DNA of 64,000 nt from Volvox africanus. Its lineage: Eukaryota; Chlorophyta; Chlorophyceae; Chlamydomonadales; Volvocaceae. Of this stretch, positions 4,346-62,900 are shown piece by piece. Below the pieces are notes generated by a model. The model saw only the letters and a program-made list of their open reading frames with translations, made no database searches and was not told where the DNA came from. The stretch covers positions 685,001-749,000 of the forward strand of contig BSDZ01000027.1 in the NCBI GenBank assembly GCA_030268105.1, read 5' to 3'. Within the stretch, counting starts at the first letter, position 1. Each line of letters starts with the position of its first letter. A program made the translations under genes and the position numbers.

Positions 4346-14858
<10,513 letters not shown>

Positions 14859-16425: not shown

Positions 16426-19400
16426 CAACCTTCTTACCAATATGGCGAGCATTTGGACTGGCGGAATGCGTCGGCACTGCTAGACGCAAGACCACTGGGG
16501 TTAAGCAGTTTTGAATTAAAGGCGTTTTCTTGGAACCTCTGCCGCGCAGTACGCGACTTTCACGGCAAGAACAAGGTACCGGTAAGAACGGGTAGTTGTG
16601 ACCTCTTTGCTGGCCTCCTGATTGACATGGCTCCACCCTGCTTTACAAAGCCCCTAAAACACCGCAAAACAATATTTAAATATTGATCGAATTTTAAAAT
16701 CATGATCTGTGCCCGTCCATCCGCTCATCCATCCTCCGGCAAGACGGAGCCCTCAACAAACTTGCCTAATTATCATAACTGCTGAGAGTATTCTCACGCT
16801 ATTTTGTCCCTGTTCCATGGTTACGACAGTCGGAGACTCATGGCGGTCTTGAGCTTGCTTCCATCGTAATCAGCAGCGACGACCCGACAAAGTGCTCCAT
16901 ATCGTTGAATCGAATCCTTCCCTGCAGCAAGTGCTATCATAGCTCCGCAACTACGCCAGACCCACTTGTTACGGCTGCCGGCTCAACCGTCCCAACCGCT
17001 CTCTGTAAGGTTTCTAAGCCTAAAACAACGGCTGCGTTCGGGTCAACGACCAAGCCACCTGGCTGTAGTCCTTCATCCGCAACGTCTAACAGTTACTCCT
17101 GGGACGATGTCGTTCCTGGCAACCACCTTCAATGCGGCGACGCCAGCGGCTGTTGCAGCTCCAGTGCAAGCGGCAACAACTACCGTACATATGGTTGCAG
17201 TACCAAGACCAGCAGAAAAGGTGACAGTAGCGTCTGCGGGGCGGATTCCCAGGGCACTGGCACTTTCTTCCTCAGCTGCAGCAGCAGGTGCTGTCGCGGG
17301 ACGAGCTCCGGCAGCGGTGGCGCCGATATGGTGTATATGGAAGCCCCTAACGGGTGGTGTCGGGCTCCGGAGCAACTGTTGGGGGTGCCGTACGGTCCAC
17401 CTGCTGGTAAGCAACAGAAGAATACAACATTTAAACTGTATAGGAATTTCCCTTATGTCCTCATGTCATGTCATGCCTTCCTAAACCCTAACACCCAATA
17501 AGCACATACACATACATATATAAGCATACACGGGCCCGTACAGTTGCAGACTTTTGGGCACGCTCTTTTGCAGCGTTGGGAATACCTCACTATGGCTGGG
17601 ACCAATTGGGACCACAACATCCCCTCCTAGCCATAGTTGGCACGCAAATGCGGTGTGCAGTTCCGGTTGACATCACCGACCATGGAGCAGCAAGAACAGA
17701 GCAGGGGCTTAAAGACAGGAGTTTTGAAGAGGAGGTTCTGTGGGAGGAAAGAGGGAGAGAGTCAGGGAGGTAGAGACAAGGAGAGGGCGGTCTAGTTCTC
17801 GAGGAGGGGAAGGGAGAGGATGGAGGGTTTCGTGGCTAAAGGGTTTTAGGGGGGGTCAGCGAGAGAGGTCTTTCCTTTTTGTGCAGTGCAGGTGTTTGCG
17901 GGGCCAGCTTTGGGTGGGGCCGGAATCCTTTCTAGGGGGGCGCCAGTTTGGCTTGTCATCCCCCCCTCCGCCTCTTGTTGGGTTCTTCCGGCTTGGCTGT
18001 GTAAGAGTGTGCTTTCCTGCTGGTGTTTCTCCTCTGAGGGGATCTGTGTGTGTCTGTCAGGCTCCTGTCAGGTCAGTTTCGGGTTAGAGAAGAGGGTTCC
18101 CCTTCCGTTGAGCAGCTAGGTGTCCCCCGTTTTCCGTTGCTTCCCATTGTGTTTTCTTGGTGGCCCTGAGTGCTCTGTAGGTGGCCAGGCGAGAGCCTGT
18201 GAGGTCTTGCTGGCCCGAGTGAGAGGGGGAGCACGTGGCAGGACAGACAGACAAAGCCACGTGTTCCTCCCCTGCGCTGTGGCTCGGTCCGGTCAGGACC
18301 CCCGGTGCTCGTCTTTGAAGGGCGAGTCGCCCACAGTGTAACACCCAAACATACACATACACATACACATACACATGCACATACATGTACATATACATAT
18401 GTAAACATACACAAGCCGTCACCATTTCCACCTCCCCCACAGATATGTTCGCTGTTGGCTGCATACTCGCGGAGCTCGCAACCGGCCAGCCGCTGTTCCC
18501 AACTCCCTCGGCGGCGGCGCAGCTGCATCGTATTTTGAGGTTGCTCCGACCCGTGGGTCAGTGTACAATCGGTCAATGCAGCCGCCCCGGCACCACCGCA
18601 ACGGAAACACTGGATCCATACGGCAAGCATCAGACTGGCGCAGTCTCATTAACTACTGCTGCTACTTCCGCTGAGGCGGCGGCGGTGGGCGATGACGGAG
18701 CTGCTACTGCCGTGGGGGCCTCGAACACGACTGTTGATGCCCTGACGGTTGGGGAGAAGTGGTCCGACAGTGGTGGCGGCGGCGGCGGCGGCGGTGGGGA
18801 CTGTGACGGCGGGACTAGCCGTGGTCCATTGCGGCAGTGGCTCCTCCGTCAACTCTCTTTAGGTACGGCTTGGGAAAGTTCCGTACGAATTTCGGCCGCC
18901 ATGCTGACGGACGGTACGGCTGCAGCGGCTGGGGAAGATGAGCTCTTCGCGGACCTCGTTGAGGCGTGTTTGGAGCTCGATCCCACGCGCCGCCCGACGG
19001 CAGAGCAAGCGCTACAGATGCCGTACTTTGCTTCGTACGTCGTTGCAGTACAGGACACCGCCGTCATACTAAGTAATGCAATCGGAGAGACTCAAGTAAG
19101 GGGACGGGCGGGCAGCGGCCCCAACGTCGCCGTCGAGTATGGTGGACTGTGTGTTGTCAATCCTCGCGTCAGAGGCAGCAGCGGTAGCAGTAGCAGCAGC
19201 AGCAGCAGTAGCAGTAGCAGTAGCAGGCCGGAGAATGGGGCAGAGGCGGTCGCGCCTCCGACATCGTTAGCAAGTGCAGCTACAGCCGCAGGAGTCCCGC
19301 CTCCCTGCGCAGATTCCAAAGGTTGCATTTCATCAGAGGTTGCTGAATCGGATCGCGGCTTGAACACGCCTTCACCGCCGCCAGCACCAGCACCAGCACC

Positions 19401-22400
19401 AGCACCTCCAGTTGCTGCTATGTACGACACCAGTCGTACTCGGCAACGCACATTGCAGCAGCTTCTTGCTGGGTCATCTTCATCAATTGCATCGAACCAC
19501 TTACCAGCGCCGCCTTCATCGCCGCCAGCAGTCGCGGCGACGGCAGGGTCAATGGCAGCACTGATGAGTCATACAGCGACAGCGACCCATGGGTCAGTGG
19601 ACTTCGCCTCCGCCTGCGCCTCCGCGGGCGACTCTGCATCCTCCACGCCCCGGTCACGCATCTGGAGGAACGGACAGACCCCGGAAAGCGCCCCCTTGCC
19701 GATCGTCACCTTTTCCACTGACATGAGCTCATGCTTAGTGTCGGCTGGCGCCATCGCCGCGCCACCGCCAGGTGAGATCGACCCACGCGTCATTGCCGGC
19801 GCTGGCGAGTTGCCATTCACCTCCAACGTGGACGAGCAGCCCCCCCTGTTGTTTCGCCCTTCCTTCGGCGGGAGCCCGGCCAGCGGCCGGATAGCTGAAC
19901 CGGGCTCGTGTACGAATACATTCCCACTATGCCCATGGCGGACTGGCGGAGGCGGCGGTGATGGCGGCGGCCGCGGCGAAGGCGGCGATGATGGCGGCGA
20001 TGACGGTGGCGCCACTACTCCATCACCTGGCACGCACCTGAAGCCGCAGCCCCTGCCGTGGAGGTTTTGCACCAGGGACGGCCGCGGCGGGGAGAGCACT
20101 CTGGATTTGCCGCTCGTCCTGCTCCAGGGAGACCGTTCCGTTGTCCCGCGGTACAATCTGAAATCCGCGGTACACTCTAAGCCGCGTCCCCAGTACCACA
20201 GAAAACATGGTCCCATGGGTCGCTCGCTGCCGCCCTTCCTTCAACATCATGAAATGGGCATACAAAATGGTATCGAGATTGCAGAAGATTGCGAAATGGT
20301 ATGGCGCAGTTTCGGGAATGTACGGTTGTCTGTTGTACGGTTGTACTGTTGTACGGGTGAAGTGGATGAACAACGTGTAATGGCTTCTGGTTTGTCTGCG
20401 TGTAAGCCACTGTGTAACAGTGGCTTCACACAAAAGAATACTTGAAATAAAAAGTTGTAACAACAATAAAATAATAATGGATATGTGATAATATGTTTCA
20501 TGATGAGAATGCAAAAAAATACTTTTATTAATGCAATATCGAATGCCGCTCCCACAGGTGCCTCCGGGAGGTTGCGGAAATCAGTGCGACACTGCTACTG
20601 CCGCCGCCATTTCCACCGCTACTGCTAGCGCGCCTGCCTTAGCTGCAGATGTTTCCGGGGGAAACATTGCCATTCCTTACGCCGCCGGAGGACGAGGGGC
20701 GGTCGACAGCAGACGCGCGTTTTCCCCTGTGCCATGTCTTAGCTCCGGAACCCGAGCCGCTGGAGATGCGGCGGCGGTGCCTAGTGGCGGCGGCTGCGGC
20801 GGCTGCAGCGGCACTGGTGGTGGTGGCACTTGCTCGTCCCTCGCTGTTCGTCGCATGTACAACACACCGCCGCCGTTGCTGCTTGCTCCGGATGCTGCGG
20901 AATCCGAATTGGCCGCTGCACTCGTCCATTCCTTACCGCAAGGCTCCGTCGGCGATGGCATGTCGTCGCCGTCGAGTTGCCGAATGCTAACTTTACCATC
21001 CCAATCCTTGAGCAACCGACAGTCGTACCTCAGCCCCCGCCAGCAGCTTCCGCAGGCCCAGGGATGGTACGACGGGAGCGTTCGTGCCGTCAGCTCGTCC
21101 GGACCGGGCCCTTACGCCCCAACACCGCCACTGAGCTTACACCCTGACGGCGTTTCGGACGGCCGCCAGCACTTCCCAGGTGCAGATGGTGTGACGGCCG
21201 CGGCGGCGACGGCGGCGGCGGCGGTGGCGTGTCGGGCTGCGAGTGGGGGCAGGGAAGGCATCATGAGCAGAGAGGATGGATGGCGCTTGGAAGGCCGGGG
21301 AAGGCTAGGTTTCTCGGGACCCTTAATGTCGGTCAATGTGACCAACGAAGAGCAGGCGCTCCCGTACTGGCAGCATAACCGAAACAGTTTCAACACCACT
21401 GAACCACGGGTATTTTCACCGTCCCACGGGTCGCGTCATTCAACGCTACAGCCTTTGGCAATGCATCCGGTTGCACTCGTACCGAGTGGCAGTCAAAAAA
21501 CGCCAGCGTGGCGCAGTAACTCCGAGTCGCAACTTGTCATCGTCCCGAGTGACCCATGGGTCAGTGGGGCAGCCCACGGCGGCGGCGGCGGCGGGCCGGG
21601 GACGGCGGCGGGCGGCGTGGGTCGAAGAGGATACGTTTCTACGGGGACCTCCCGCCCAGATACGGCCAGTGCTGACGGCCCAGAACCCGGGCGACTGGCA
21701 GTAGCAGTGGAGGCTGAGCCAGAGGCTGTAGCGGGTTTTAATGACAGTGGGCCCCTTTGGCCCATGGGTCGCGCGCGGCCCCACTCCATGAAATGGGCTG
21801 GCAGCGTCCGGGTCGGCGGCGTCGGCGGCTGCGGTGGCGGCACATATGCCTGCGGCGGCGGCAGCGACGGGCCGCTACCCCGCCTAATCACTGTACTGCA
21901 ACGGGAGCTTATAGCACAACATCAACATTTGCCGTACATCGTCGGCGGCGCCGGCGCCGGCGCCGGCTGTGGCGGTGGCGGGTTTCTTCGGTCGCACACA
22001 CCGACAGAGACGGACCCGCTGCGGACTCTTTCTGAGGTCTGCGAATCGAGTTGTAGCGAAATGTGTCTGCCCGTCATCCTATCTGTCACACAGCCGTACG
22101 GCGCCGCCGCTACCACCGCTGCCGTATCAGAATTACCGTTGCCGCCAGGGCCCCATTCGCAGCGTCGCAGCCTCATGGTGCCTCCGCCGGTCAGAGGACC
22201 CAACGCAGCATCCGAAATCAACGGCGGAGGCGCCAGCATCGTTGCGCTGACGCCGCCGCCGCTGACGGTGAAAGGTCTAGCCCGACGAGCCAAGGACCGA
22301 TTACAACGATACTTCAGTGAAGACGGGGGCGGCGGCAGGGACGGCGGCGGAGGCGGAGGCGGAGGCGGAGGCGGAGCCAGAGGCGGAGGCGGCGGCGCCA

Positions 22401-22702
22401 GCACCGGCCGTGGTGGTGTTGCTGTCGGCGGCAGCGACGACGCCGCAAGGTCACTTCATCATGACGTCATTCCCAGCCTCGGTGTCGACGGCCGGGGCGG
22501 GAGTGACGTCGTTGACGGCAGGACTAGAGGCCACGGCGGCGGCGACGGCGATGTCAGCGGTGGTGACGTCAGCGGTGGCGGCAGCGGTGGCGGCAGCGGT
22601 GGCGGCGGCAAGCGTCGGATAATGAGCACCCTCTCTCGTGCGTTTAAGCTCGGAACTTCCCTCGGGCAAAGGGTGGTTCCTGAGAAAAGGATAGTGCGTT
22701 AG
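16426..22702 (+). CDS. Divergent CMGC-like (pseudo)kinase with long low-complexity tail
   Basis: Kinase-like pieces: exon 16426-16575 with GLSSFELKAFSWNLCRAVRD (helix E-like); an exon ending at 17406 with GWCRAPEQLLG (APE motif); and from 18443 DMFAVGCILAELATGQPLFP (helix F), which splices in phase to it. The arrangement matches CDKL/MAK-type CMGC kinases. The tail is Ala/Gly/Ser/Pro-rich, from 18443 to a donor near 20319 and from 20558 to the stop at 22702, ending in a basic segment (KRRIMSTLSRAFKLG). No intact N-lobe, VAIK lysine, HRD or DFG was found. A frame at 16701-16866 resembles a catalytic loop but holds TAA stops. Start, first exons and activity are unresolved. The two long stop-free tail exons suggest an expressed gene; a pseudokinase or a partly decayed gene both fit. 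Confidence 0.55.
18341..18380. repeat. Short (ACACAT)n tract before a kinase-like gene acceptor
   Basis: Same hexamer as the large array at 6466-6622, here about six copies, in the intron just upstream of the acceptor at 18442. Confidence 0.85.
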
Positions 22703-25905: not shown

Positions 25906-28900
25906 TCATAGCACCAAGATGTCCGCGGCGAGTGCCCGTGCCTCCATACTCCCCTGCCGGAGCCACTGCTCGTGCCGGTTGGCGTCCAGGTCGGTGGCGG
26001 TGGCGGACAACACATTGTTGACGTCCAGGTTGAGAGTGATCTCAATGCGGGGCAGGCCACGGGGAGCTGCGAGGGGGGATGGGTTCGTGGGTTAGTTAGT
26101 AAGACTGTTAGCATTAGTTGGTCTGACGGTTACGCCCGAGCCCTCCACTTCTATTTTCAACCAACAAAGCCCATTTCCAGAACTAGTTCCCCCCCCCACC
26201 TTCCCCCCACCTTCCCCCCACCTTCCCCCCAACTCCCCGAGGACGCACCGGGGGGAATACCCTTCAGGTCGAACTGCCCGATGACGTTGTTGCGGCTCGC
26301 CACGGCCGCATCACCCTGGGGGCGGGGGGAAGGGGGGGGACGAGGGAGGGGGGGAGGGGGGAGGGGGGGGATGAGGGAGGGGGGGAGGGAGGGGGGGCGG
26401 GGAGGAGGGGGGGAAGGGGGGAGGAGGGGGGGGAGGAGGGAGGGAGGGAGGGAGGGGGGGGAGGGGGGGAAGGAGGGATGAGGGGGGGGGATGAATGAGG
26501 GAGGGAGGGAGGGAGGGGGGGAGGAGGGAGGGATTGAAGGTATCCGAAAGAAAATCATCCACTCACCACCAGCACCACCAGCACCACCAGCACCACACCA
26601 CCACCCCAGACCGCACGCACTATTCCTGTCTCCTTCCTGGAAGAGCCAGATACCTAACTGTTGACCACGATTATTCGGAAGCACGAGCAACGCAATGTCG
26701 CACATGGTGTTTTTACTCCGGCACACACATCGCCCCGTACGCCTCTCTTTGGGCGCCCCCTCTCCCCCCCCTTCCCCCTCTGCCTCCCCCTCTCCCTCCC
26801 CTTCCCCCTCTGCCTCCCCCTCCCCCTCCCCTTCCCCCTCTGCCTCGCCCTCCCCCTCCCCCTCCCCCTCCCCCTCTCTCACCCGCAGCACGAGCACGCA
26901 GATCTCTGTCTGGTTGTCGTGAACCTGTGAGCAAGTAAAGAAACGTGCATATTGCGTTTCTGGGAAATGAGGGAGGGTACGTCGACAAAACGAGGCATGA
27001 TATCGCTGTAGACGCTGCTGTATGGCATGACTAACCGCGATGGTGGAGGACAACGTCTAGCTCCGGATAGGGGGGCTTTGCGTCACCCGTGGCCACGACC
27101 ACCTGGCAGCCGTCCCTACTTTCCCCCTGGTGTATTTCGGGGCACCCTCATCCGTTGACCCCTAGGAAGTTGGCTTCTCCGAAATGAGTGTTTTTCCGGC
27201 AGGTAGGTGGTTCAGCACCCACCGCCAGCATCCAGTGGAATCTGCCGGATCAACGGCAGCCTCAACTCCACTCCTGGTCGGCTCACAAGTCACTGTAACC
27301 GGTCCTCACCGTCCACCGAGATCGGGGCGGGGTACATCCTCCCTCTGACAGCCTCTGACAGCCGAATGTTTTTTACTCCGCTCTCAGTCAGGATCGATCA
27401 TGGAACTTCCAGAGGCACAAAATCATGCCATAACAGTTGTGTCCGAACACATATATTTATACATCCCTACGTAAACCCTAAAACACAATATAAAACCCTG
27501 AACTCCGACGTCACCTCCTCCTCCTCAACCTCCACGCCGTACAGTCTAACCCACCGTCGTAAAGATCTGCTTGCCCGCCGCCGGCAGTTGCGCTTGCGAA
27601 GGAATGAGCACGTAGGTCCGGTCGCCCTGCATCTGCACGCCGAGGGCGGGCCGCCGGGCGGGCAGCTTCCAGCCCCGGTAGTCCTGGCTGTAGACGGAGG
27701 AGCCCTCAAAGGCAGCTGAGGGGTGCATGGGGGGCAGCGGCTGGGAAGCGCGGGACAGGGGATAGGGGATAGGGTGTTAGGAGGGGAAGGGGCGGTGTAG
27801 ACAACCGAGAGGGGGGATTGGGGGGAGGTATGGCGACATACACATACACACATACGGCCATACACGCATACACAACGGATAACATTGAACTCGATCATCA
27901 ACACAGGACTTCCTGCCCGCCCCTGCTCACCCCCGCCCGTTGCACAAGCGAGGAGTCGACGGGCCAGGGTTGGTACTGGTCGCGTGTTTCCGTACTGCCC
28001 TGAAACGGTGCCGGATTCGGTTGGTAGTTGGGGGGCGGGAGGGGCGAGCGCGGCTCCAAGGGATAGGCCTTGTAGTCACTCCTGCATGCGCACATGGGAC
28101 GTGATTTCTGGTTTTTTCAAAACATCTAAGAATCTTCGGATATTGGATTGGTTGGGGTACTGGGGTACTGGGTTAGGATTCGCGGTTAAGGTTTTGCGGG
28201 CTCACAATTAGTTGCGGTTAACGGTTATGAAACGATGGCGATGCAAAAAGATACCGGAAGCGTGATGCTCATTGACATGCGCGTGCACGTCTTGCGTACT
28301 GCCGTACCGGTGGCCCTAGCGAAGGGTCAAGGCTGAACGGCGGACGTGACGATTGAGGCGGGGTGATTGGAAGAGGTATCAACACAGGTCAGAATCCAAC
28401 CCGGATCCAGATCTGTGAGTGCCGTACGGCATCACAACTTCGTACCTGTAGTTCGTTTGCCCTTCGAACGGCACGGGGTTGACAGCAGGGGATCCGGTGG
28501 GTACGGGCGGCCGGGGGCCGATTGGGTGGGCCTTATAGTCGGCCTTCACCCGCACACACGCACGTCGGAGGAGGAGGGGTAATCGAGGGGTTAGTGCGCG
28601 CGTGTGCGTGTGTGTATATGCGTGTACGTACTGGTGGTGTGTATATCACACCCGTACAACTATGCCGAGATCATTGCCGAGATCATACCTAGTCTAGTAA
28701 TTGTAGATACCATCTTGTACATCTTTAGTTCTTTATCTTTTTTGACAGTTTTATTTCTTTAGGTTTAGGTTATGATAATTTATTATTTTACAATATCTGT
28801 GTATATGTCATATTTCACCTCCACTGTGACGAGTCCTAGCAGGATAAGGCCCCCGGGAATTTTCGCCGTCGCCGGCAAAATGTGCTCACTTGCTTGCAAA

Positions 28901-30293
28901 CTTCTACTTTCATTTATTTAGCTGGTTTAGTAATCGATTTCATTTTTTTAGCTATCACCCTTTCGTGACAGGTTAAGCGGTAGTCCCATGTATATATCCA
29001 AAAGCACATGGTATTGTGTACCTTGTAGAGGGAGGTGCCGTCAAAAGGCGCCGGGTTGGGCTGGTAAGCCGCGGCGGTGTGCGGCAGTCTCGGCTCCAGG
29101 GTGTGTCGCGTGAAGTCCTGCCGGTACAGCGAGCTGCCATCGAAGGGCACGGTACTGGGGTTGTACGGCCTGGGAGTGACGGGTGGCTTGGGCTCGATGC
29201 TATGGCCGCGGTAGTTATCGCGATACAGAGTGGTGCCTGCGGGGGAAAGGGGGGACGGGAGAGGGGAGGGGAAGGGGGGGAGTTGGATAAACGAGGCGTG
29301 AAAGGAGGGAGGGTTTGGAGTGGCCGCAGGGCACATTTGGGGCGGAATCAAAGATGCAATATCTTCTTTCTTCTCTACCAGAGATAATGTTTATTCATCA
29401 TCATCTGGTTAAATATTGCCATTTACTATCCTTCGGTTTACGCTCACGTTTCCTCCAATCACTTCCACAAAATGAGAGGCAAATTCACAACACCATGGGC
29501 GTAGTAAAAGCTATTTATAGCTATCTCGTTCTTTATCCTTGGCTATATACACTGCGGGGTGCAAGTACGGACAGTGAACCGTATATAACGGATTAATAAA
29601 TACAGGCTGTTGAGTGGCTGTTGTTTTTCTGTTTGCCATTTTCTGTATGTGTGTGTGAATGTGCATGTGTTTGTATGGTGTGAAATGAAAACAGAGCTAT
29701 GTGGGCGAAGCGGTATGAGAATGCTCCTGGACAACATGCTGAGGGAAAGCGTTGCCATCAGGTAGTTTGGATGCAGTGCTTCACAACCCAGTGGGAGGCG
29801 CTGTGAAGGCTCTGACAAGACTGGCATCACAAGCGCCGTGGGTGATGCAAGGCAAACTCAACGTACGGCTGCAAGGAATAAAAACCGCTTACCCTCGAAG
29901 GGTGCGGAGTTGGGCTGCCACTCCCCGGGCTGAGGCGGAGATCTTGGCTTTATTGGGTATGACTGGTAGTCCTGCTTGTAGGAGGAGTTGCCGTCAAAGG
30001 GAACGAGGTTGCCTGCCATACCGAACACCATGGGTCCGACACCACAACATCGCGTCACCGTAACACCAAACTTGTAAACGGAGCTTTCCAAAGGCCCTAA
30101 AACATTTGTAAGATGCTTAATATTCCTCACCATTGTATTGACGCCCAGCAGGCGGAGGCCGAGGATCAATATGATGGGGAATGTAATCCGATGCGTAAGA
30201 TGAGTGCCCCTGAAACCCAGGCTGTGATCCATAAAGTTGGATTTCTCTTCCTACGTAATGATCTCGATAGGGATCTCCAGTCTTAAAGCTCAT
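25906..30293 (-). CDS. SAXO/MAP6-type repeat protein fused to Hsp70 substrate-binding domain
   Basis: Nine exons: 30293-30131, 30012-29893, 29236-29022, 28543-28446, 28081-27931, 27740-27555, 26924-26883, 26315-26249, 26066-25906. Phases agree and give 400 residues. Residues 27-280 hold eight repeats of the form F-(D/E/Q)-G-x-(S/T)-x-Y-x-x-D-Y-x-x-x-x-(I/L)-x-P-R, starting at 27, 60, 93, 126, 159, 192, 225 and 260. They resemble the microtubule-binding repeats of SAXO/MAP6 proteins in axonemes. Residues about 281-375 match the Hsp70 SBD-beta fold in order: GVQMQGDRTYVLIP, AGKQIFTTVHDNQTEICVLV, NNVIGQFDLKGIPPAPRGLP, RIEITLNLDVNNVLSATATD. The ATPase domain and helical lid are absent. Likely an axonemal or microtubule-associated protein that uses the SBD for binding rather than as a chaperone engine (inference). 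A TGTAA lies on the minus strand at 24336-24332. Confidence 0.92.
26318..26535. repeat. G-rich tract (pyrimidine tract in the transcript)
   Basis: About 215 bp of GGGGGGAGGG-type sequence on +. In the SAXO-Hsp70 transcript it is an extreme polypyrimidine tract directly before the exon 8 acceptor (start 26315). Confidence 0.95.
26757..26878. repeat. CCCCTC-rich tract (purine tract in the transcript)
   Basis: About 120 bp of CCCCTCCCCCTCTGCCT-type repeats on +, immediately after the exon 7 donor in the SAXO-Hsp70 transcript, where it reads GAGGGGGAGGGG. Confidence 0.95.
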
Positions 30294-45544: not shown

Positions 45545-47497
45545 CTACCCCTTGAGGCTGTAACCCTTCCCGGAAAACGCCTTGAAGTAACTGTTGGGGT
45601 CTTCCTTCTTATCCTCGGGTGGTGGGGGCGGCGGCTTCGGCGCCCCGCCGGACTGTTTGGCCTGCGCCAATGGTCGAGGGAAAGCACAGTGCAGTGCATC
45701 GCGTATATAAATGCGTCGCGAAAAGAAATATTTAGACCGGGCAACAACCAGCCCGAAACCAGCTTAACGAAAAGCCATACCGCAAAACCAAAATGGCGGA
45801 GCCTTAACGATGGTGAAATGCTGTGCCACTAAGTGTGGGCACACAATGCACATCCCGGAGCCCGTTCGTCATGTAAGGTTGGGATCCCCGACACCCACTC
45901 CGTTCCGTTCGCTGCTTTGCCAAGCCCCCAAGCTCGCGCATGAACACTAGATACAGCCCCGCCTCGACGAGATGTGCAACCAGCCCTGCTGAGAAACACA
46001 AGCCATCTGACCGCAAACACATGGGTCATCAACATGCATCGCTGAGTATAAGTGACTGATGGCCGATATTCCAGCCCAGAGGCCTCACCGCCAACTTGGC
46101 CTCCAGTCTGTTCCCCGTAGGGCCGAAGTTCACAAATGTCCCCGCCTTCTGTGAACCGCCGCTGGCTCCAGCAGACCCTGATGGCCCAGCTCCGGAACCG
46201 CTAGGCCCTTCTTTGGGACTGGCTGCAACGCCAAGGGAGTTATTGGATGGCACTCGAAGCGGCACGGGCACAGGGTTGGAAGGGCCCCCCGCCTTGCCGT
46301 CTAACCGCCGCCCTGTGCCCGCAAACGCCAGGAATTTGGGCTCCTCTGGTTCTGGCGCTGAGGCCGGACCGGCAGCGGGCCCCGCCTTCCCTTCTGCCGC
46401 AACTGGCACTGCGCGAGTAAGCGGAGCACAGCGGTCGTGCCGCGAACGAGTGTATGGGGCGTCGACGGGAAGACGGCTCACTCGTGCGAGATTACGACAA
46501 GCGGATGGATGGAAATTAGGACCATGCGTGGAGAACACAAGTTGAGGAGGCGGACGCAATATTTTGCCTTAACAACTTAGCACATGGCCATATACACAGG
46601 AGTAACTGTATTCCGTGCCGAACTTCCATCAAGCTCAACGCAGCTCCCGGCACATGCCCGTGTACAACACCTGGCGGCGGCGGTTCAGACGCCTTCGGCG
46701 GGACGCGCTCGGGCTCCTTGTAGTCCTTCGGCGCCTCAAAGTCCACTTGGCAGTCCGTCTCAATGACCGATATGGCCGGCCCCGGTTTTGCGTCTTTGAC
46801 CTCTATCTCGTAGTTTTTATTATTGTAATTGACCACGAAACAGTCCCCCATAGTAAGACAGCTGTAGCTTCTTAAGGTTCGCTCCAGAACGGCCTTAGGG
46901 TTTGTGATATCTAGGAAGTCCGATGTCACGGGCTGAAGCTTCACATACGTGCCCTTGGGCAGGGAGACGCTGCGCACGCGAATGGTGTCGCCCACTTGAA
47001 GAAGAAGGTTTTGCATCATCTGCAGGGTATTGGCAGAGGAAACGCCAGCAGGGCGGACGGGCTAAGCGTCCTGCTGAGCTTAAGACGATTGAACAGATGT
47101 TGGTGGACCCCGGGGGCCTTGGAAGGCGTGTTCTCACCCAATGCGGCATGTACACGACACCCTCCTCTGCGATGAATTCCAACACGCCGCAGTGCGTATG
47201 CCGCTTGGACTGCATGCCCTCCACTTTAAACAACATGGGGTACTCAATGTGTAGGGAAGCTGCGCGACAAACCAGTGTCCGTCAGCTACATTAATGAACT
47301 TTCATATTTCCTCTTTTGTATTTTGCCATATAGCAGTATGTGTTCCTACCCAGGCGCTCTAATGCAGAGGGCGGCATGATGATCTTGTCGCCATGTTCGG
47401 CAGATTGTTTGTCAATGAATGCCACGGGCATCGCTCTATACATCGCCTCAAAGGTTTGAGGCGAAAAGCCAGGTATGCCCCCAAAGCCCCCGAACAT
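45545..47497 (-). CDS. UFD1: UFD1, ubiquitin recognition subunit of the CDC48-UFD1-NPL4 complex
   Basis: Adaptor that, with NPL4, brings ubiquitinated clients to the CDC48/p97 unfoldase in ER-associated and nuclear protein degradation. Exons 47497-47350, 47259-47138, 47019-46671, 46408-46089, 45661-45545 join in phase to 351 residues (human UFD1 has 307). The UT3 domain is clear: FEAMYRAMPVAFID, GDKIIMPPSALERL, CGVLEFIAEEGVVYMPHW, LPKGTYVKLQPVTSDFLDI, SYSCLTMGDCFVVNYNNK, ISVIETDCQVDFEAPKDYKE. The C-terminal part holds p97-binding SHP-type boxes: FLAFAGTGRRLDGK, FVNFGPTGNRLEAK and, at the very end, FKAFSGKGYSLKG. The start MFGGFGG was chosen because it matches the family; an in-frame upstream ATG at 47557 adds only a hydrophobic stretch. 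Confidence 0.96.
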
Positions 47498-50900: not shown

Positions 50901-53900
50901 CCGCATCCGCCATTTGTGGCTCCGCAGAGAGACTCAGAACCCGCCCATCCAGCTGCACGGCGGTGTCCTCAGTCCACGTGCCACTCAGGGTGGAGCGCCT
51001 GATGCATTAACATACGTCAACAGCGCGACAGGGTCGGCTGGAAATCGCGGGATGATGGCAAATCCAATATTGTTCCTGTTAACCTGCTAGTATGATTCCA
51101 CGAACTGCCCAACTCGACCTGTCTAGTTTCACGGTCCTCTCCCAAAAACCCCTCACCTAAAGCGCACCACGTGGCCTTGAGCCGTCGCAACGAGGGCCGA
51201 GTCAATGCCCGCAGCCATGGCTGTCACAGCCGCATCCCCGGGCATACGCGCGACCTGCCGATGTTGAATTACGGCAATGTTAATGACATCATCACCATAG
51301 TCACAATGGGTCTGTTTTCATTGGGTATGTTTACATTACCCAGTCCATGCGAATGCGCTTCTGGGGCCCTAATCCTGCGTTTCTGCTTCTCGAAGATGAG
51401 ATATGGTGTGATGCACATCAAGCGCACGCATGGGCTGAAGCCCCCTTATATATGGCAGCCGCAGCACAGGAGTTCCTGCAGCGGAGTTCCAGCGCACGCA
51501 CAGCGCAGGTGAGCAGGTGAGCAGGCGTACGTCGACCTCTACCCGCATTCCCCACCGCAAGTCCCCGACCTGCGCCATGGTGACCGAGCCTCCGGCAACA
51601 GCCCCCGCCACCTCCACGTGCCAGATGGGAGTGGGCGGCGGCGGCTCGGCTGCGGATCGTGGGCTTCTTCCCGATGCCGGCGCCTCCGCCACCAGAAGCG
51701 CACCGGCGGGGTCCACCGCCAGCGCCGTACACGGCACGGGCCTATCCTGGTCGCTTAATGCGACGGAGCGCTGCTCGAGGAAGCTGCAACGGGAGCAGAA
51801 CGGAATAGCTGTCATAGAATGGAAAGTAAAGGACAGGTTAGAGGGTAGGACCCAACTGGTGGGCGCATGGATGTTTGGAAGAGGCATCGTCGTAATAGAA
51901 AGCAACGCCATCTAGATAACCGGACATTTGCAGAAACAGACGCTCGCTCGCGTTCACAGCTTACCCGGCCGCTTGACGGATCGCAACAAACGCATGCACG
52001 GACGCATAGCTTCTCATGCTCAGGTCCCTGGGCTCAGGAGACAGGTTCCGGACGCACAAAGTCGCGTGCACCTCCAACTCGCGTGCAAACATGAGAAACA
52101 CACACACACACACACAATGCTGTCTTCCCTTTAACACACACGACGTGCCTGTCTTGTAGCGTCCACAGCAGCAGCCCCTCCGCCCCCACGCTCGCAAAGA
52201 CCGGGTGGTCGCCACCCCACAGCCACTCCGCCGCGGTGGGCAGCTTTTCGGTGCGTCCCGCCGCCACCAGCAGTCCTTCAAACACGTCCCAGACCACCAC
52301 GGAGCGCTCGGGCTCGCGACCCAGCGACAGCAGCCACCGGCCATCTGGCGAGAAAGACAGCGCCTGCATGGCGATGAGTGGACGAGGCCTAAGTTCCGGG
52401 TGACAAGTTAGGTCCGGGATGGACCGGGGACCACCCCGTTCCGGTGCGGGTGCGGTGCTGGGTCCACGAACAAAACGTGACGTGGAGGAGAAGTGGGTTA
52501 TGTGGTTTCGGTGCCGACGCGGCGACGGCGGGGATTAGTTCCCACAGGACCCGTACTATCGTGCGATATTCAGGCTTAAGGAATGAGGTATGCCTAGAGG
52601 CATATCTTGCTGGATGTGTGTCCCTGTGACAATGTTCTTTACCTATCAGGGTACCCTCTACCATCAGAGTATATCCAGGGCGCCTTGTCCTGCTTTGTTT
52701 CTGTAGTTGCATTTTCGTTAGCAGTACCACATCGCCACGGCGCGCATTTCAGACTTTTTTATACCGAGTCCGGCGGTCTGTATCAACATTCGGCATACGG
52801 CACATTTCACCCTATACCTCCGCACCTGAACTGCTTGCGTGTGGTACCTTAGCCTCCACCGCTCCCTGCCACTGGCAATATCCCACACCACCACATCCGC
52901 GAAGGGCGCCGTTGTGCAGGGCACCGCTAGGACCGACGTCACCGACGACGGGTCCACGTTGTACAGCTCCGGCGCCAGCGGTGCCGCCGCCAGCTGCGTG
53001 CCGTCGTATGACGTCGCTAGGCACGCCAGCGGCTGCGTATGGCCGCGTAGGTAGCGCTGGTGCCGCGTGGCGAGGTGCTCCAGAACCACCATGTCCTGTA
53101 CGACGTAAGCAAAGAGGCCAGTTTCGGGGCGCCAGCTCACATTATTACACCCGGTCGGGGTGTAGCCAAGTAGCCAGCTGCACTTGGGTGGGGGCTGCGG
53201 TAGCTGTGGAGGCGGGAGCATTGCCCTTGTCGGTGATGACATTCCGGGTCGATGTTGCTCTACGGCAAGGGATCTAGGTGATTCCAGCGGATGTACGGAT
53301 CGTGGTGACAATGATGATGACAGGGTCTGTGTATGTTGCGGCAGTGCCGTCACCGCCAGCACGCTACTGCCGTCAGCGGCACCGCCAGGTGCTGGGGAGC
53401 GTGGCCGCGGCCTCCCAACGCCATCATACGTTGACTTGAGCTGTTGCGTTGGCCATGGAGATAGCTGCGGTCCGCTGTCGCCGCCGGCGGCGGGGCTGGA
53501 GATCCGTGCTGACGCCAGCGCAGCGGCGGTGGCATTGAACGCAACCGCTGCTGGCTGAGACCCCGTGGTTGTGGCTGTCAAGCCGTCGGGATGTGCAAGC
53601 AGCGCCGCAGGAGCCGGGATTAGGATGGTGCCTGGAGGCAGAGGTACACCGCTGAGTGCGGCTGCACGAGTTGTAAGGTAGTGGTCGCCGGCGTCCGCCA
53701 CGGGCCCTAGGGACGTCCACGGTGCAGCGCGGGAGAGTACGTTGTGTGGGTCGTTAAGGGCTGCCATTGCGGCAGGTTGCGCGTCTTCTGGAGGCTGTAG
53801 TGCCAGCGGCAGCGCGGCGAGGCGCAGCGCTGCGGCAGCGCGTGCTGCCTGCTGTAGCTGTTGTTGATGCAGCGCATCGGCGGTGACGCGCCAAACGCAG

Positions 53901-56900
53901 ATGAAATCGGCGTCGCCGACGGTGATGAGGTGGCCTCGGTGGAAGGCGGCCCCTGCATGAGTATGTGTTGGGGTAACAAAGTTGTGGATGGACACCCATA
54001 TGTGCGTGTGTATGGTATGTGTCTGTGTATGGCCGTAGGGATGTGGCTGTAGGGATATGGGGGTGTATCTTAAAACAACCATCAGTCCGAGGCCAAGTCA
54101 TTCACTTTGACTCACACAGCTCAATTCGATACCCTAAAGCCCAGGCGCAGGCAAGCAAGCATCCAGCACCCAGCGCCTAGCCCATCTCACCGAGCACCGC
54201 ACTGGGGTGTCCCACGAATGCCTGATGCGGCGGAAGGCTGCATGGCTGGAGCGCCGAGATGGGCATTGCGGCCCACATCCTCAAGATCCCGTCGTTGCCC
54301 GCAGTGAGCACGTAGCGCCCAAGAGGGTCCATCGCCATCGTCGTCACGTCCAGCGACGATACCTCAAAGATCTGTAGCGGTGGCGAAGGAACAGCCGGTG
54401 ACAGCCAGATCCCGGAGTTAAATTGTCCGGATCGAGCCAAGGTTGAAACGAACGCGGAGGATTGGTGATTCCCTGGAGATGTAAACGTTGGCCGGAACTG
54501 GTTACGTTTGAGTAGTGAAACGGCTTGAGTGAAACGGCTTTGTCGGTGTTTGGTTGACGTGCAATGCACTTCGCCGTGCGAGGGAAGTAATAGGTTTGGT
54601 GTCCTTACCTGCTGGACTACGTGTCCGTCAGCCAGCTCATAGCGGTCTAATCGGCGGCAGGACGCCAGTGCCCACAGCTCCTTAGAGTCGGAACTGAAGG
54701 CCAGCCTGGGTGCCGTAGATTTCAACGGATAAATGATCAGTGGATTCAGAATCTCAACAACGCTTTGAAATTTTGAGAAATAGGAAAACATAGGACTTTG
54801 ATTGTATGGTCCAAGGTATGGACCAGAAATAAAAACACGCGATCATGTATGTCGATAACTGACAATCCGGAAGCTCGTCGCGTGGATGCAACCCAGCCGA
54901 CATGCTTGCGGCCCTAACAAATACGCGGAAGCAGACGAGTGAGGAAAAAGGTGCTCCGGAGTGCTGATATGGCTTGCGGGCGAGCAACCTTCCCCTTCCT
55001 TCCACCCTCTCCTCCGCCTTGCTCCCCTTCCCGTTTCGTATGACTGAGCCTGTGTTTTTCTGTCCCCTTCCTCTCCCTTCCGTCCTTTACCCCGGTGACG
55101 CACTTCACGTAGGCCTCCGCGTCCGTCTCGATCCGCATGAAGGGCTCCAACGACTTGCCATGGAACACCAGCAGCGAGGTGACGCCGCGGTAAGGATCCC
55201 GGATGAGGCTGGCGAAGTAAGCGCCGTCGGGACTTACAGCCACGCAGACCTGCGGGCAGCGACATAAAGACATCGGTGTGGATATGGGAACATAGGTAGC
55301 ACTGATACGGGAACAAAGGGAGCGTCAGCCAGAGCATTACAGAAACGCTTAATGAGGCGAGGCGAGTTGAAAGGAACAGAGATCATGCGACGCAGGTGCG
55401 TTAATGTGATGATATGTGTACGGAACTTGATTACGTGAAGGTATGATGATGATGGCGTCTAACTTAGAACTGACTTCTGAATAAGTTTTTATAACATTTT
55501 CGCCCACAAACGAATGAGAGAGATGCCAGCATTACTGATAAGCTTGGCGGCAAAGGAGCGGCCGTTGGCATACGCGCCGCCGTGGGCTTTGCGAGCGACT
55601 GCGGCACTGGCTGACGGCCAAATACGGCAATATTGGAAAGGTCTGGTCAGTCTCAAGTTCGTGGGCGTCAGAAGTCTAACTCTGTGCGGGAGTGGGAGTA
55701 GACGTGAGGCTTCGGGTGTAGGAATGAATGGGAATACACACAGGCGCGGAGGATCTCCTGCGGATCGTGTCAACAAGTACCTTGATATTGCGCACGCCAG
55801 CTGACAGGTATTGTGTCGGAGCATACAGCCTCTGGACATCGTACATGACTAGCGCACCGTCCATACCGCCACTGAACAAGCGGTCACCTGCCGGCGTGAA
55901 AGCCAGCTCAGCCACTGGGGCGCGGTGCTGCTGCTGCTCCTGCACATGCCAAAGAAAAAAGTCACAAAGAGGAAGGTGGCAATCCCGTTAGGATTGGTCA
56001 GCTTGGGAGCGGGGCCCCAATTAAAATTGAAGTGTAATACCAACAGCCAAAACCCGGCTGCCAGAAAATATTACCAGAAATTATTACCGGCAGCCAGAAG
56101 TTATTAACTGCCTGCCTAATACTGCCTAACATCTGACGGTTGAAAGGTCGCGCCGCCACCGGCCAACTAAAACGACACGGGCGACAGCGACTAAGACAGA
56201 CCCGAAGGGTGGCCGAGAGGGGACTTTGCGAGGGGTGCTATTTCTTAATAATTATGGCGAATGTTAAATGCGTTAGGTACTCTGTTGTGTTATTCTCAGG
56301 TCTCATCATACTTGGGCCATCGACCTTTTGCTCATTAAACAGGTTTTATCACCACCAACAACAGAGTGCGGAGTAAGGAAAAAAGAAATGCGGTGGGTCA
56401 ATGCTGTATAGCACTAATCCGGCGTGATAGTTGAAAATTAACCAATCCAAATAAGGTTCGACAGACAGACCTGGATGAGAGTGGTGGTGCTGACGTCAAA
56501 CACGCGCACGCGGCCATTGGCGAAACCCGCAGCGAGCTCATGGTTTGATGGCAGTGGGTGGTAAGCGACACACGTGACCGCCTCTCCCGGAGCGTCGAAC
56601 TCATAGAGCTGCTGGTACGTGAGCAGGTGCCAGATGCGCAGCGTGCCATCCGTGGACACCGTGCAAAAGTGGTCCCTGGAGGTAGGTGGGACGTCGGGGC
56701 ATGTGAAGGCAACACGACACCTCAAACGGTGTGGTGTGGGAGTTGGGTGGGCTACAGGACGGGGAGTGATGGAGAAGGAGTGCGAGGTGCTGCAGCACTA
56801 GCATAGTTCTAGCCATTGTCTGCGATTCGTGTTGTTTCTTCTCTTCTACTTATTGGGCTTTACTTGATTTATTTTCAATCCGTGTAAAGTTTGGGATTCA

Positions 56901-59900: not shown

Positions 59901-62900
59901 TGCGGGGATAATAAGTGTGGGATGGTAAGAAAGTGGTAAGCAGGTAAATATCTGGGGTTAGGGACTCAGCGGACCGAGAAAAAAGGACGTGGGATTTGGA
60001 CGCTCCCTGACGCCCTCGCACCATCCCGTCCTAACTTTCTATCCCTCTCCCGCATATGTTAGTAATCGCAGCCGACTAAAAGAGCTTCATGGGATCATGG
60101 CAGCCGGCATCCTATCCCATAAAAAAATCATCCGGAAACCAGATAGATCCACATCGAAATTCAACATGAGATCTAGGTCTGGCATAGAGGCATACCGTTG
60201 AGAATGGCCAGACACGCACAGGTCGCCACATCCCATAGCCGCACCACTGCTTCTTTGCCCTCCTGTGCGCTCGCAACCAGCTCCCCGTTGCTGCTGGCTG
60301 CTAGCGCGCAGACGAAGGCCGTGTGACCCAAAAGGTACCGCTGCTTCCCCGGCTCCTGCTGCAGCCGCTGTGCTTCTGCTGCCAGCGCGGTTGCGCCCGC
60401 TGCCACAGGTGGCACATCAGAGATCCGCATTATCACAACCACGCTGGCCGCTGTGAAGGCGACTTCGTCTCCACCGGGGATCCAAACTAGGCAACGCACA
60501 AACTCGCCCGAGTACGAGTTCATGCGGACGAGTGACAAGGCGGGATCGGGAACCAGCGGCGGGCACTGAATAGTGGCATCAACACCGAGTGTTGCCGCCG
60601 CGATGACGGGTCTGTTCGGCTGTGCTCCAGCCGCGGTGGATGGATTAGCGATGGCTGGGGTACGGCGAGGGAAGCCAGCGGTGACGTCGGGGTCGCCGGG
60701 ACGCTGCGGTACCGCTGCGGCACCAACGACGGTGGAGGCCGCCGTCATAGCAGCGAGGTTAGCGGCCGTGGTTCGTCGAATGGCTTCGGCCGCGGAGATG
60801 GGTGATAGTGGAGTTCGAACCGGGGACGGCGGCGGCGGCGTGCCCTTCTCATTATCGGAACTCATGTAACCGCTATGCTGGTCGTTGGCATGGTCATTCG
60901 GCACGGCGCTGCCATTCCTGACGCCGCCGCGGCCAGAGGTAGTGGCGCCAGTGGCACTGGTGCCGCGTGCGGAACCCCGGGTGGGGGCTGATGTCGAGCC
61001 CTTGGCACTGGACGCGCTCTTCGCAGCTGCCGGGGCCGTTTTGGCGGACTCCGTCGTTCTCCTCCTCCCGGAAATGCGCTTCGGTGGCGGCCTGCAGAGC
61101 CAACCCAGTTAGACCGGGTGGCCCGAGTGAGAATACCCATACCGGTGCATTCGGCCTTCCGCGTTTTAAATGAAAACGACGGAGAGTGAGTGCGCAGATC
61201 TTTCGACCGCCCTCCCTGTAACCGGCGTGTCCATTGCACCCATAGAAAGCGCCAAACCCTTCAGGACTGGCCCTTCAAGAAGTACCTCACGGACGGCCCG
61301 CAGGTCAGAACGGGTCTGCAACGCTGAGGCGATCGAGGGGCGGCACGCACTGCTAGCTAACAGCAACTAGCGCAGCACGCGCAGCTAGCTGACCCTAAGA
61401 CTACATTTATAAAAAAATCGCCTGCCTGCTTGCTTGCTTACATGAAGTCAAGGGTGGGTGCGTCCGCCGCCTCCTTTGGCAACCACGCCATCTCAAACAC
61501 GCCTGAGTCCAAGGCGTGCGACAGCGCCATATCGCTGGGCAGATTCTAAGGCGGCAGCGGCACGGGAAATACAATTGGATAGAGACGGTCCTCCAAAGAA
61601 CCTTAACTTTATATTTTATACATGTTATACCCCTGCACTTGTCTCCAGGACGATTGGCCGAATGTGACCGCAGCGAGGGCGACAGAGAGGGACACAAGTA
61701 CTCGAGGTTCGTGACATCGGAAGTAGACGGGTGGTCGTGGGAGGGGAGCGGAATAGGGAAAGATGTTCATGCGGCAGGTGATGCGAGTTTGCTCGCCACA
61801 ATTGCCCACAGGTGATAGGCATGGTGGTCGCCAGTCAGGTCCTACCCTTTGAACCCTGTCCGTCCCCTTTTGACTCGTCCAGCCTCTTCCCCCGCCGGCT
61901 CTGGTGGAACACCACGCATCCCTACCTCCAAGGTGAATTTGTAATCTGAAGTAAACATAGTCCGCACAGTGAGCCATGAGCACATCTGGATGGACTTAAT
62001 GAAAGCGAAAGGCGAGGACGTGAGCCCGCGCAGAGCTGCGCACATGTCCACCGCGAGTACACACCACCGGTGGCTGGCGTGGGGGAAGGCCAACTGCACG
62101 CCACTGGACTTGCGCTGCGGAAGACCAAGAGTTGGCATCGTGAAAAGCAGCGCCAGGAACGACGGGGAGGAGAAATTTCCCAGTTAGAAGCCCAGGGACA
62201 GCCCAGGGACAGAGAAGAAAGGAGGGAGAGACGACGGCGACAAGGTGCGGATTCACAATGCGGATTCAATGGAGTCAAAAGGGGACGGGAAGCTGGGGAA
62301 GGGGTTATTACAGGGGCGTGGGATCCGGCAAAGTCGCGATGGGAGCACCAGCACCCGCAACGAGTGTTATGCTGCTGTGTGCTGCTGCTGCTTCTCTTTG
62401 TTGTGTTTCCATCCTTGTTGGAGGTCAGGTCAGGAATTCAGGTTAGATGATCCAGAAGTGGGGCCATGATAGGAACTGTGGCGTGTGGCAAGAGGAGCCC
62501 TATGGCGAGAGCTCAATGGCAACAAGGAGCCCCTAATTCAAAAACGTGGTTCTGTTTGGAACTTCAAGGCACGGTCAGAAGTTGACGGTAAAATTGCGTT
62601 AGGATAGCAATATGATTCAAGATAAGGACTTAAAACCTGGACAAAGTAGGCTTTAATCGCTGATGCTTTTACTGGGCCTTACGGCAGGTACAGCTGTGAT
62701 ATAGATATAGCCTCTCAGGAAACAAAGCGCGAGAGCAGACGGAAGTGCGTGCGTTGGAATTCCCACGGCGACATAACATAACTTGGTTTCAACGTATCCG
62801 GTGGGGTCCCCAGTATAAAGGGTTGCTAATTGCAACCGCATCCAGGCTCACCTTGGGGGCGTCTGGGGAGTACATATTGCTGACGGAGACGCGGTGTACA

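What the first reader, a model, noticed from the sequence alone, without database searches (positions are those of the whole stretch)
25906..30293. Fusion of SAXO/MAP6 microtubule-binding repeats with a lone Hsp70 substrate-binding domain
Seen: eight F-x-G...Y-x-x-D-Y...P-R repeats run in frame, across phase-consistent exons, into a complete Hsp70 SBD-beta (GVQMQGDRTYVLIP to LNLDVNNVLSATATD) and stop. There is no ATPase domain and no lid. Known: SAXO repeats bind axonemal microtubules; the Hsp70 SBD binds extended hydrophobic peptides and normally depends on the ATPase domain. Inference: a nucleotide-independent peptide-binding head attached along a microtubule, perhaps docking client or structural proteins in cilia. 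I do not know a described protein with this layout.
Basis: partly seen in the sequence, partly recalled or inferred. Interest (0 to 1): 0.92.

Follow-up and report, generated by a model that had tools for sequence, protein, structure and literature searches.

The report
FAP363-like flagellar protein paralogue in Volvox
A Volvox gene joins eight microtubule-gripping repeats to the peptide-binding half of an Hsp70 chaperone; the layout is real but already known from FAP363, a protein inside algal flagellar microtubules, and this gene is an unstudied sister of that one.

Summary
A nine-exon minus-strand gene (30293-25906, all eight introns GT-AG) encodes 400 residues: eight SAXO/Mn repeats, mostly 33 residues apart, then an Hsp70 substrate-binding beta domain, with no ATPase domain or lid found. 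The joint lies inside one exon (27740-27555), so it is not a splicing artefact; relatives of the same layout are annotated in other volvocine algae.

The layout is not undescribed. The best-matching solved protein is Chlamydomonas FAP363 (6U42/8GLV, E 1.2e-36), a doublet-microtubule inner protein whose Mn repeats bind the lumen and whose Hsp70-like domain bridges two RIB43a copies. The window gene is a paralogue: the same genome carries FAP363 on another contig, and both groups form one clade apart from 20 Hsp70s (100/100).

Most likely it is a luminal strut using the Hsp70 fold as a fixed docking head. The groove's central valine, kept in 198 of 198 sampled Hsp70s, is replaced in 11 of 11 window-type rows. 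No PDB sequence is nearer than FAP363, so position and partner are open.

The parts
25906..30293 (-). Whole gene, nine exons, 400-residue FAP363-family paralogue
   Evidence: GT-AG at 8 of 8 introns, open frame; collinear 89% identical annotated protein P0001 of the same length
30234..30248 (-). N-terminal REIQL motif, residues 16-20
   Evidence: Found by pattern in FAP363-type rows as REIKL; 0 of 11 SAXO controls
30131..30293 (-). Exon 1: N-terminal motif and repeat 1 (from 30215)
29893..30012 (-). Exon 2: repeat 2 and start of repeat 3
29022..29236 (-). Exon 3: rest of repeat 3, repeat 4, start of repeat 5
28446..28543 (-). Exon 4: rest of repeat 5, start of repeat 6
27931..28081 (-). Exon 5: rest of repeat 6, repeat 7
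27555..27740 (-). Exon 6: repeat 8 (from 27710) and the start of the Hsp70 domain (residue 280 on) in one uninterrupted frame; this is the joint
26883..26924 (-). Exon 7: Hsp70 SBD-beta, VHDNQTEICVLVLR, with the altered pocket residue Ile319
26249..26315 (-). Exon 8: Hsp70 SBD-beta
25906..26066 (-). Exon 9: end of SBD-beta with the family-specific RHxxW element (residues 378-382) and last strand, then stop
   Evidence: RHxxW pattern in 13 of 14 window-type and near rows, 26 of 31 FAP363-type rows, 0 of 134 Hsp70 rows; strand 387-392 in the model of P0001

Best explanation
The gene encodes an uncharacterised paralogue of FAP363. Each of its eight Mn repeats grips one tubulin dimer on the inner wall of a flagellar or basal-body microtubule, so that the chain lies along protofilaments as a strut. 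The C-terminal Hsp70 beta domain, without ATPase, linker and lid, is a fixed docking head that ties the strut to a neighbouring filament or to the next copy of itself, as FAP363's head bridges two RIB43a copies. Shown here: the gene, the repeats, the domain, common descent with FAP363, the changed groove. Inferred from FAP363: luminal position, docking role. Unknown: partner and which microtubules.
For: Best PDB sequence match is FAP363, in both halves; top Foldseek match of the model is also FAP363. Shared marks beyond repeats and domain: N-terminal REIxL-type motif and C-terminal RHxxW. Family clade 100/100 against 20 Hsp70 rows. FAP363's Mn repeats bind the tubulin intra-dimer interface in the lumen (PMC8144581, passages) and its HSP70-like domain bridges RIB43a (PMC7590530, passages). 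Groove change: the position of DnaK V436 is V in 198 of 198 Hsp70 rows, I or M in 11 of 11 window-type rows, A or C in 25 of 26 FAP363-type rows.
Against: It is a paralogue, so place and partner may differ: no PDB chain is nearer to it, or to its C. schloesseri relative, than FAP363, so it is not among the solved axoneme chains. Eight repeats in a row would cover about 64 nm of one protofilament, longer than the 48-nm repeat, so a different run than FAP363's six is needed. No expression, localisation or binding data. FAP363-type as one group has only 75/44 support.
Confidence: 0.7

Rival explanations
1. One reading: the SBD still holds extended hydrophobic client peptides, nucleotide-independently, along the microtubule, as a tethered holdase.
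Against: The central pocket residue and T405 differ from nearly all sampled Hsp70s (V438 in 0 of 11; T405 is M or L in 11 of 11). No lid or ATPase domain. The FAP363 domain is described as a bridge, not a chaperone. Against this objection: the arch change Y431 to V is also seen in 21 of 198 Hsp70 rows, and an isolated pocket change does not prove loss of binding.
Confidence: 0.1
2. It is a microtubule protein of another array (cytoplasmic, rootlet or spindle), not a flagellar lumen protein.
For: Not in any solved axoneme model, although FAP363 is. Mn-type proteins also serve on non-ciliary microtubules, for example MAP6 and SPM1 (PMC8144581, passages).
Against: FAP363, its nearest solved relative, is a doublet inner protein; the relatives found with names are algae, which I know to be mostly flagellate (recalled, not tested).
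Confidence: 0.15
3. Artefact: two neighbouring genes read as one, or a pseudogene.
For: Transcripts were not examined; intron 7 holds long low-complexity arrays.
Against: The joint is inside exon 6; no internal stop, 8 of 8 introns GT-AG; five annotated relatives (P0001 to P0005) align over 98-100% of it and keep eight repeats plus the domain.
Confidence: 0.01

Closest known systems
FAP363 of Chlamydomonas reinhardtii (PDB 6U42 and 8GLV, chain 5F) and its green-algal orthologues
   Same: Tandem Mn repeats, lone C-terminal Hsp70 SBD-beta, no ATPase domain or lid, N-terminal REIxL-type motif, C-terminal RHxxW, similar length (390 and 400 residues)
   Different: Separate gene in the same genome; eight regular repeats against six Mn motifs described for FAP363; pocket residue Ile against Ala/Cys and no insertion after the first strand; different intron sites within the domain; matches Pfam SAXO1-2, whereas the FAP363-type rows carry only PF00012 as precomputed, apart from a few basal rows
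SAXO1/SAXO2, MAP6 and SPM1 (Mn-motif microtubule stabilisers)
   Same: Mn repeats with about 32-33 residues per unit; SAXO1-2 Pfam match
   Different: The 11 SAXO-type rows sampled have no REIxL-type motif, and none carries PF00012 in its precomputed domains
Hsp70/DnaK chaperones
   Same: SBD-beta fold
   Different: No ATPase domain or lid; central pocket residue changed; helix with RHxxW between the last two strands

Membership tests
FAP363 family (Mn repeats plus lone Hsp70 SBD-beta) | Tandem Mn repeats followed by SBD-beta, with no ATPase domain and no lid | tested here: met
FAP363 family (Mn repeats plus lone Hsp70 SBD-beta) | SBD in one clade with FAP363, apart from ordinary Hsp70 | tested here: met
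   40 family rows against 20 Hsp70 rows, 100/100; 97/86 when the long-branched P0017 is included
FAP363 family (Mn repeats plus lone Hsp70 SBD-beta) | N-terminal REIxL-type and C-terminal RHxxW marks (defined here, not taken from a paper) | tested here: met
   window has REIQL and RHEQW; family counts
FAP363 orthologue proper | Being the FAP363 gene itself rather than a paralogue | tested here: not met
   A second gene on contig C20 encodes the named V. africanus FAP363 relative P0097; window-type rows are a separate clade, 100/100
FAP363 family (Mn repeats plus lone Hsp70 SBD-beta) | Position in the A-tubule lumen, bridging RIB43a, end-to-end assembly | not testable with these tools
   Known for FAP363 from passages only
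SAXO (Mn-motif) proteins | Tandem Mn repeats, Pfam SAXO1-2 above its cut-off | tested here: met
   35.2 bits against 26.5
SAXO (Mn-motif) proteins | Cysteine-rich N-terminus (feature recalled, from no call) | tested here: not met
   Residues 1-26 hold no cysteine (sequence)
Hsp70 chaperone | Nucleotide-binding domain, linker and lid | tested here: not met
   Pfam match to positions 391-493 of 599 only; no other Hsp70 match in the window
Hsp70 chaperone | SBD-beta fold | tested here: met
Hsp70 chaperone | Binding of extended hydrophobic peptides in the groove | tested here: inconclusive
   Only residues compared: pocket changed, scaffold kept

The most novel reading that the evidence does not exclude
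The family turned a chaperone groove into a polymer joint. The N-terminal REI(K/Q)L peptide, shared by both paralogues and absent from the 11 SAXO rows sampled, is the permanent 'client' held by the Hsp70 domain of the next molecule, so the strut builds itself head to tail inside the microtubule. The two paralogues, with opposite changes of the central pocket residue (Ile against Ala/Cys), form two filaments that do not mix, on different microtubule populations, one of which has not yet been seen in solved structures.
Probability: 0.13. Interest if true: 0.6.

Novelty: new member of a known kind. Interest (0 to 1): 0.32.

Why it matters
It shows that the striking fusion is not a curiosity of one gene: an Hsp70 substrate-binding domain already serves as a building part in the flagellar microtubule lumen. 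The window adds an old, conserved second subfamily with no known place. That points to a microtubule population or position not covered by the solved structures, and the REIxL motif and pocket residue give handles to ask how a chaperone groove became a structural joint.

Tried and rejected
Rejected: fusion by mis-splicing (joint within exon 6); a nearby split ATPase domain or lid; orthology to FAP363. A very recent duplication is unlikely, since the three introns inside the SBD lie at other codons in the two genes (the two later FAP363 sites are approximate) and the two groups are separate on the tree.

Led nowhere: naming the Chlamydomonas reinhardtii orthologue. One paper lists FAP257, FAP203 and FAP236 as FAP363 paralogues (PMC10973386, passages) and another lists FAP257 among SAXO orthologues (PMC3280300, passages), but I had no sequence to match. 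The FAP203 text hit in PMC6408466 looks like FAP20 with a superscript reference; the FAP236 hit in PMC3536430 is a line in a phosphoprotein table. The third protein search was swamped by DnaK: 120 of 3074 hits were listed and only P0140 was a new family row. A count of SAXO genes in the genome (PF05217) never ran.

Against my bolder reading: the model of P0001 gave the N-terminal stretch 11-20 a mean pLDDT of 88 and a short strand 18-20, as if it docked somewhere, but the model of FAP363 gave its REIKL stretch low confidence (58-60 and 62-64 under 50). The outputs do not say what the strand pairs with.

Rows left out: one search dropped six algal rows (P0111, P0118, P0119, P0127 too short; P0117, P0124 without an SBD match); one search also left out P0017 (long branch); one search kept 11 of 12 named window-type rows and 26 of 27 named FAP363-type rows. 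The Hsp70 rows are those that my searches returned, mostly bacterial DnaK; eukaryotic cytosolic Hsp70 is represented almost only by HSPA1A.

Full report
What is there. On the minus strand, nine exons between 30293 and 25906 join at eight GT-AG introns into 400 codons and a stop. The protein search returned a relative of the same length, 89% identical, named Volvox africanus Vafri_2471 (P0001), and relatives named V. reticuliferus, Pleodorina starrii, Edaphochlamys debaryana, Astrephomene gubernaculifera, V. carteri, Chlamydomonas schloesseri, Gonium pectorale and C. euryale (P0002 to P0009); P0001 to P0005 cover 98-100% of the query, the others 70-86%. Of the 10 members of alignment A1 (window plus P0001 to P0009), 10 match Pfam HSP70 and 9 match SAXO1-2.

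Which organism. The assembly G000 has 141 Mb in 126 contigs, with the window at C27:685001-749000. Its contig C20 (2,568,970 bases) encodes P0097 exactly in collinear pieces, except residue 16, whose codon is split; P0097 is named VaNZ11_008052 of Volvox africanus on a contig of the same length. I infer that the window is from that assembly.

The repeats. Eight units of the form F-x-G ... Y-x-x-D-Y lie 33 residues apart, the last 35. P0001 to P0005 also show eight; P0006 shows six, P0007 seven, P0008 five and P0009 three, perhaps because their models lack exons or starts. SPM1 of Toxoplasma uses 32 residues per 8-nm step along a protofilament (PMC8144581, passages), so one unit per tubulin dimer is the natural reading. 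Eight in a row would span about 64 nm, more than the 48-nm repeat of the doublet; FAP363's six are split over two protofilaments, and something similar may hold here (inference).

The known counterpart. Against the PDB sequences the best match is FAP363 (1.2e-36), then Hsp70s from 8e-22; the profile of A1 aligns with FAP363 in both halves. From passages: FAP363's Mn motifs sit at the intra-dimer interface of tubulin in the doublet (PMC8144581); one FAP363 bridges two RIB43a copies by a globular HSP70-like domain and FAP363 assembles by N-C contacts (PMC7590530); FAP363 is one of the Chlamydomonas inner proteins missing from bovine doublets, in the group that overlaps tektin's site (PMC8595878), and its gene is reported absent from Tetrahymena (PMC8742875); human SAXO6 has been proposed as its orthologue (PMC13087473). 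The primary structure paper was not held.

Paralogue, not orthologue. The FAP363-type search found rows named Astrephomene, Edaphochlamys, Gonium and V. africanus, species that also have a window-type row. In this genome the FAP363 gene gave seven of 12 matches, all on C20, while the window-type protein matched full length only at the window. On the SBD tree the 11 window-type rows are one group (100/100), the 40 family rows are one clade against 20 Hsp70 rows (100/100), and the 26 FAP363-type rows are a group at only 75/44. In the first tree P0123 and P0125 sit beside the window-type group (92/75) and P0122 beside FAP363 (93/80 for that group of 26); their branches are long, so the duplication is old but undated. 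Intron sites inside the Hsp70 domain differ between the two genes.

How it may work. The analogy with FAP363 makes a luminal strut with a docking head the likeliest mechanism. The groove speaks against general client binding. In HSPA1A numbering (anchored on V438; the roles of these positions are recalled), V438 is V in 198 of 198 Hsp70 rows, I in 10 and M in 1 of 11 window-type rows, and A or C in 25 of 26 FAP363-type rows; T405 is M or L in 11 of 11 window-type rows against T, A, S or V in Hsp70; Y431 is V in 11 of 11, which 21 of 198 Hsp70 rows also have; F428, T429, T430, D433 and Q435 are kept in 11 of 11. The pocket is thus filled in one paralogue and emptied in the other, while the scaffold stays.

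A shared N-terminal motif. The pattern (R/K)(E/Q)(I/V)x(L/I/V/H) occurs within the first 90 residues in 5 of 14 window-type and near rows (P0002 has it at 108; by eye P0004 has REL and P0125 REP; several models start late), in 26 of 31 FAP363-type rows (one, P0111, in a different context), in P0017, and in 0 of 11 SAXO rows. In the model of P0001 it is confident (mean 88 for residues 11-20) with a strand at 18-20; in the model of FAP363 it is not. I keep docking of this motif in the neighbour's groove as the boldest open reading.

What stays open. No PDB chain is nearer to the window protein or to P0007 than FAP363. Paper searches found 8 papers for FAP363, 2 for FAP257, 11 for any of four FAP names and 1 for 'HSP70-like domain' with 'doublet microtubule'; the passages I read do not describe this paralogue. 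Only passages were read in all papers, and most subscription papers are not in the library.

Noticed in passing
window 18319-20442 +: Long open frame (708 aa) with a protein kinase match (PF00069, 40 bits, E 3.9e-10), followed by a 731-aa open frame at 20507-22699 without a match above a Pfam cut-off.
   Followed up: no
window 52721-54097, 54180-54842 and 60176-61108, -: Open frames with weak WD40 or EML-like beta-propeller matches, perhaps exons of one or more WD40 genes; one piece has CFAP52 among its weak PDB hits, another EML1 and FAP251.
   Followed up: partly
window 46519-47061 -: UFD1 N-terminal subdomain 2 (PF24842, E 1.5e-34), so a UFD1 gene.
   Followed up: no
window 26318-26533 and 26756-26876: Long C/T-rich (G/A on the + strand) low-complexity arrays inside intron 7 of this gene, which interrupts the Hsp70 domain.
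   Followed up: no
window 5553-5871, 6468-6622, 12542-12663: Simple tandem arrays (ATA, ATACAC, AATA), 97-100% matching.
   Followed up: no
window gene against P0001: Two proteins tied to the name Volvox africanus (the window's, by inference, and Vafri_2471) are only 89% identical, so the two assemblies may be different species or very divergent strains.
   Followed up: no
P0017 (metagenome protein, 380 aa): A very divergent protein with SAXO-like repeats, a KEIRI motif and a C-terminal SBD-like domain; long branch at the base of the family.
   Followed up: partly
G000:C11:342394-342696 +: Weak match (34%, E 5e-4) to the repeat part of P0001, perhaps a plain SAXO gene.
   Followed up: no
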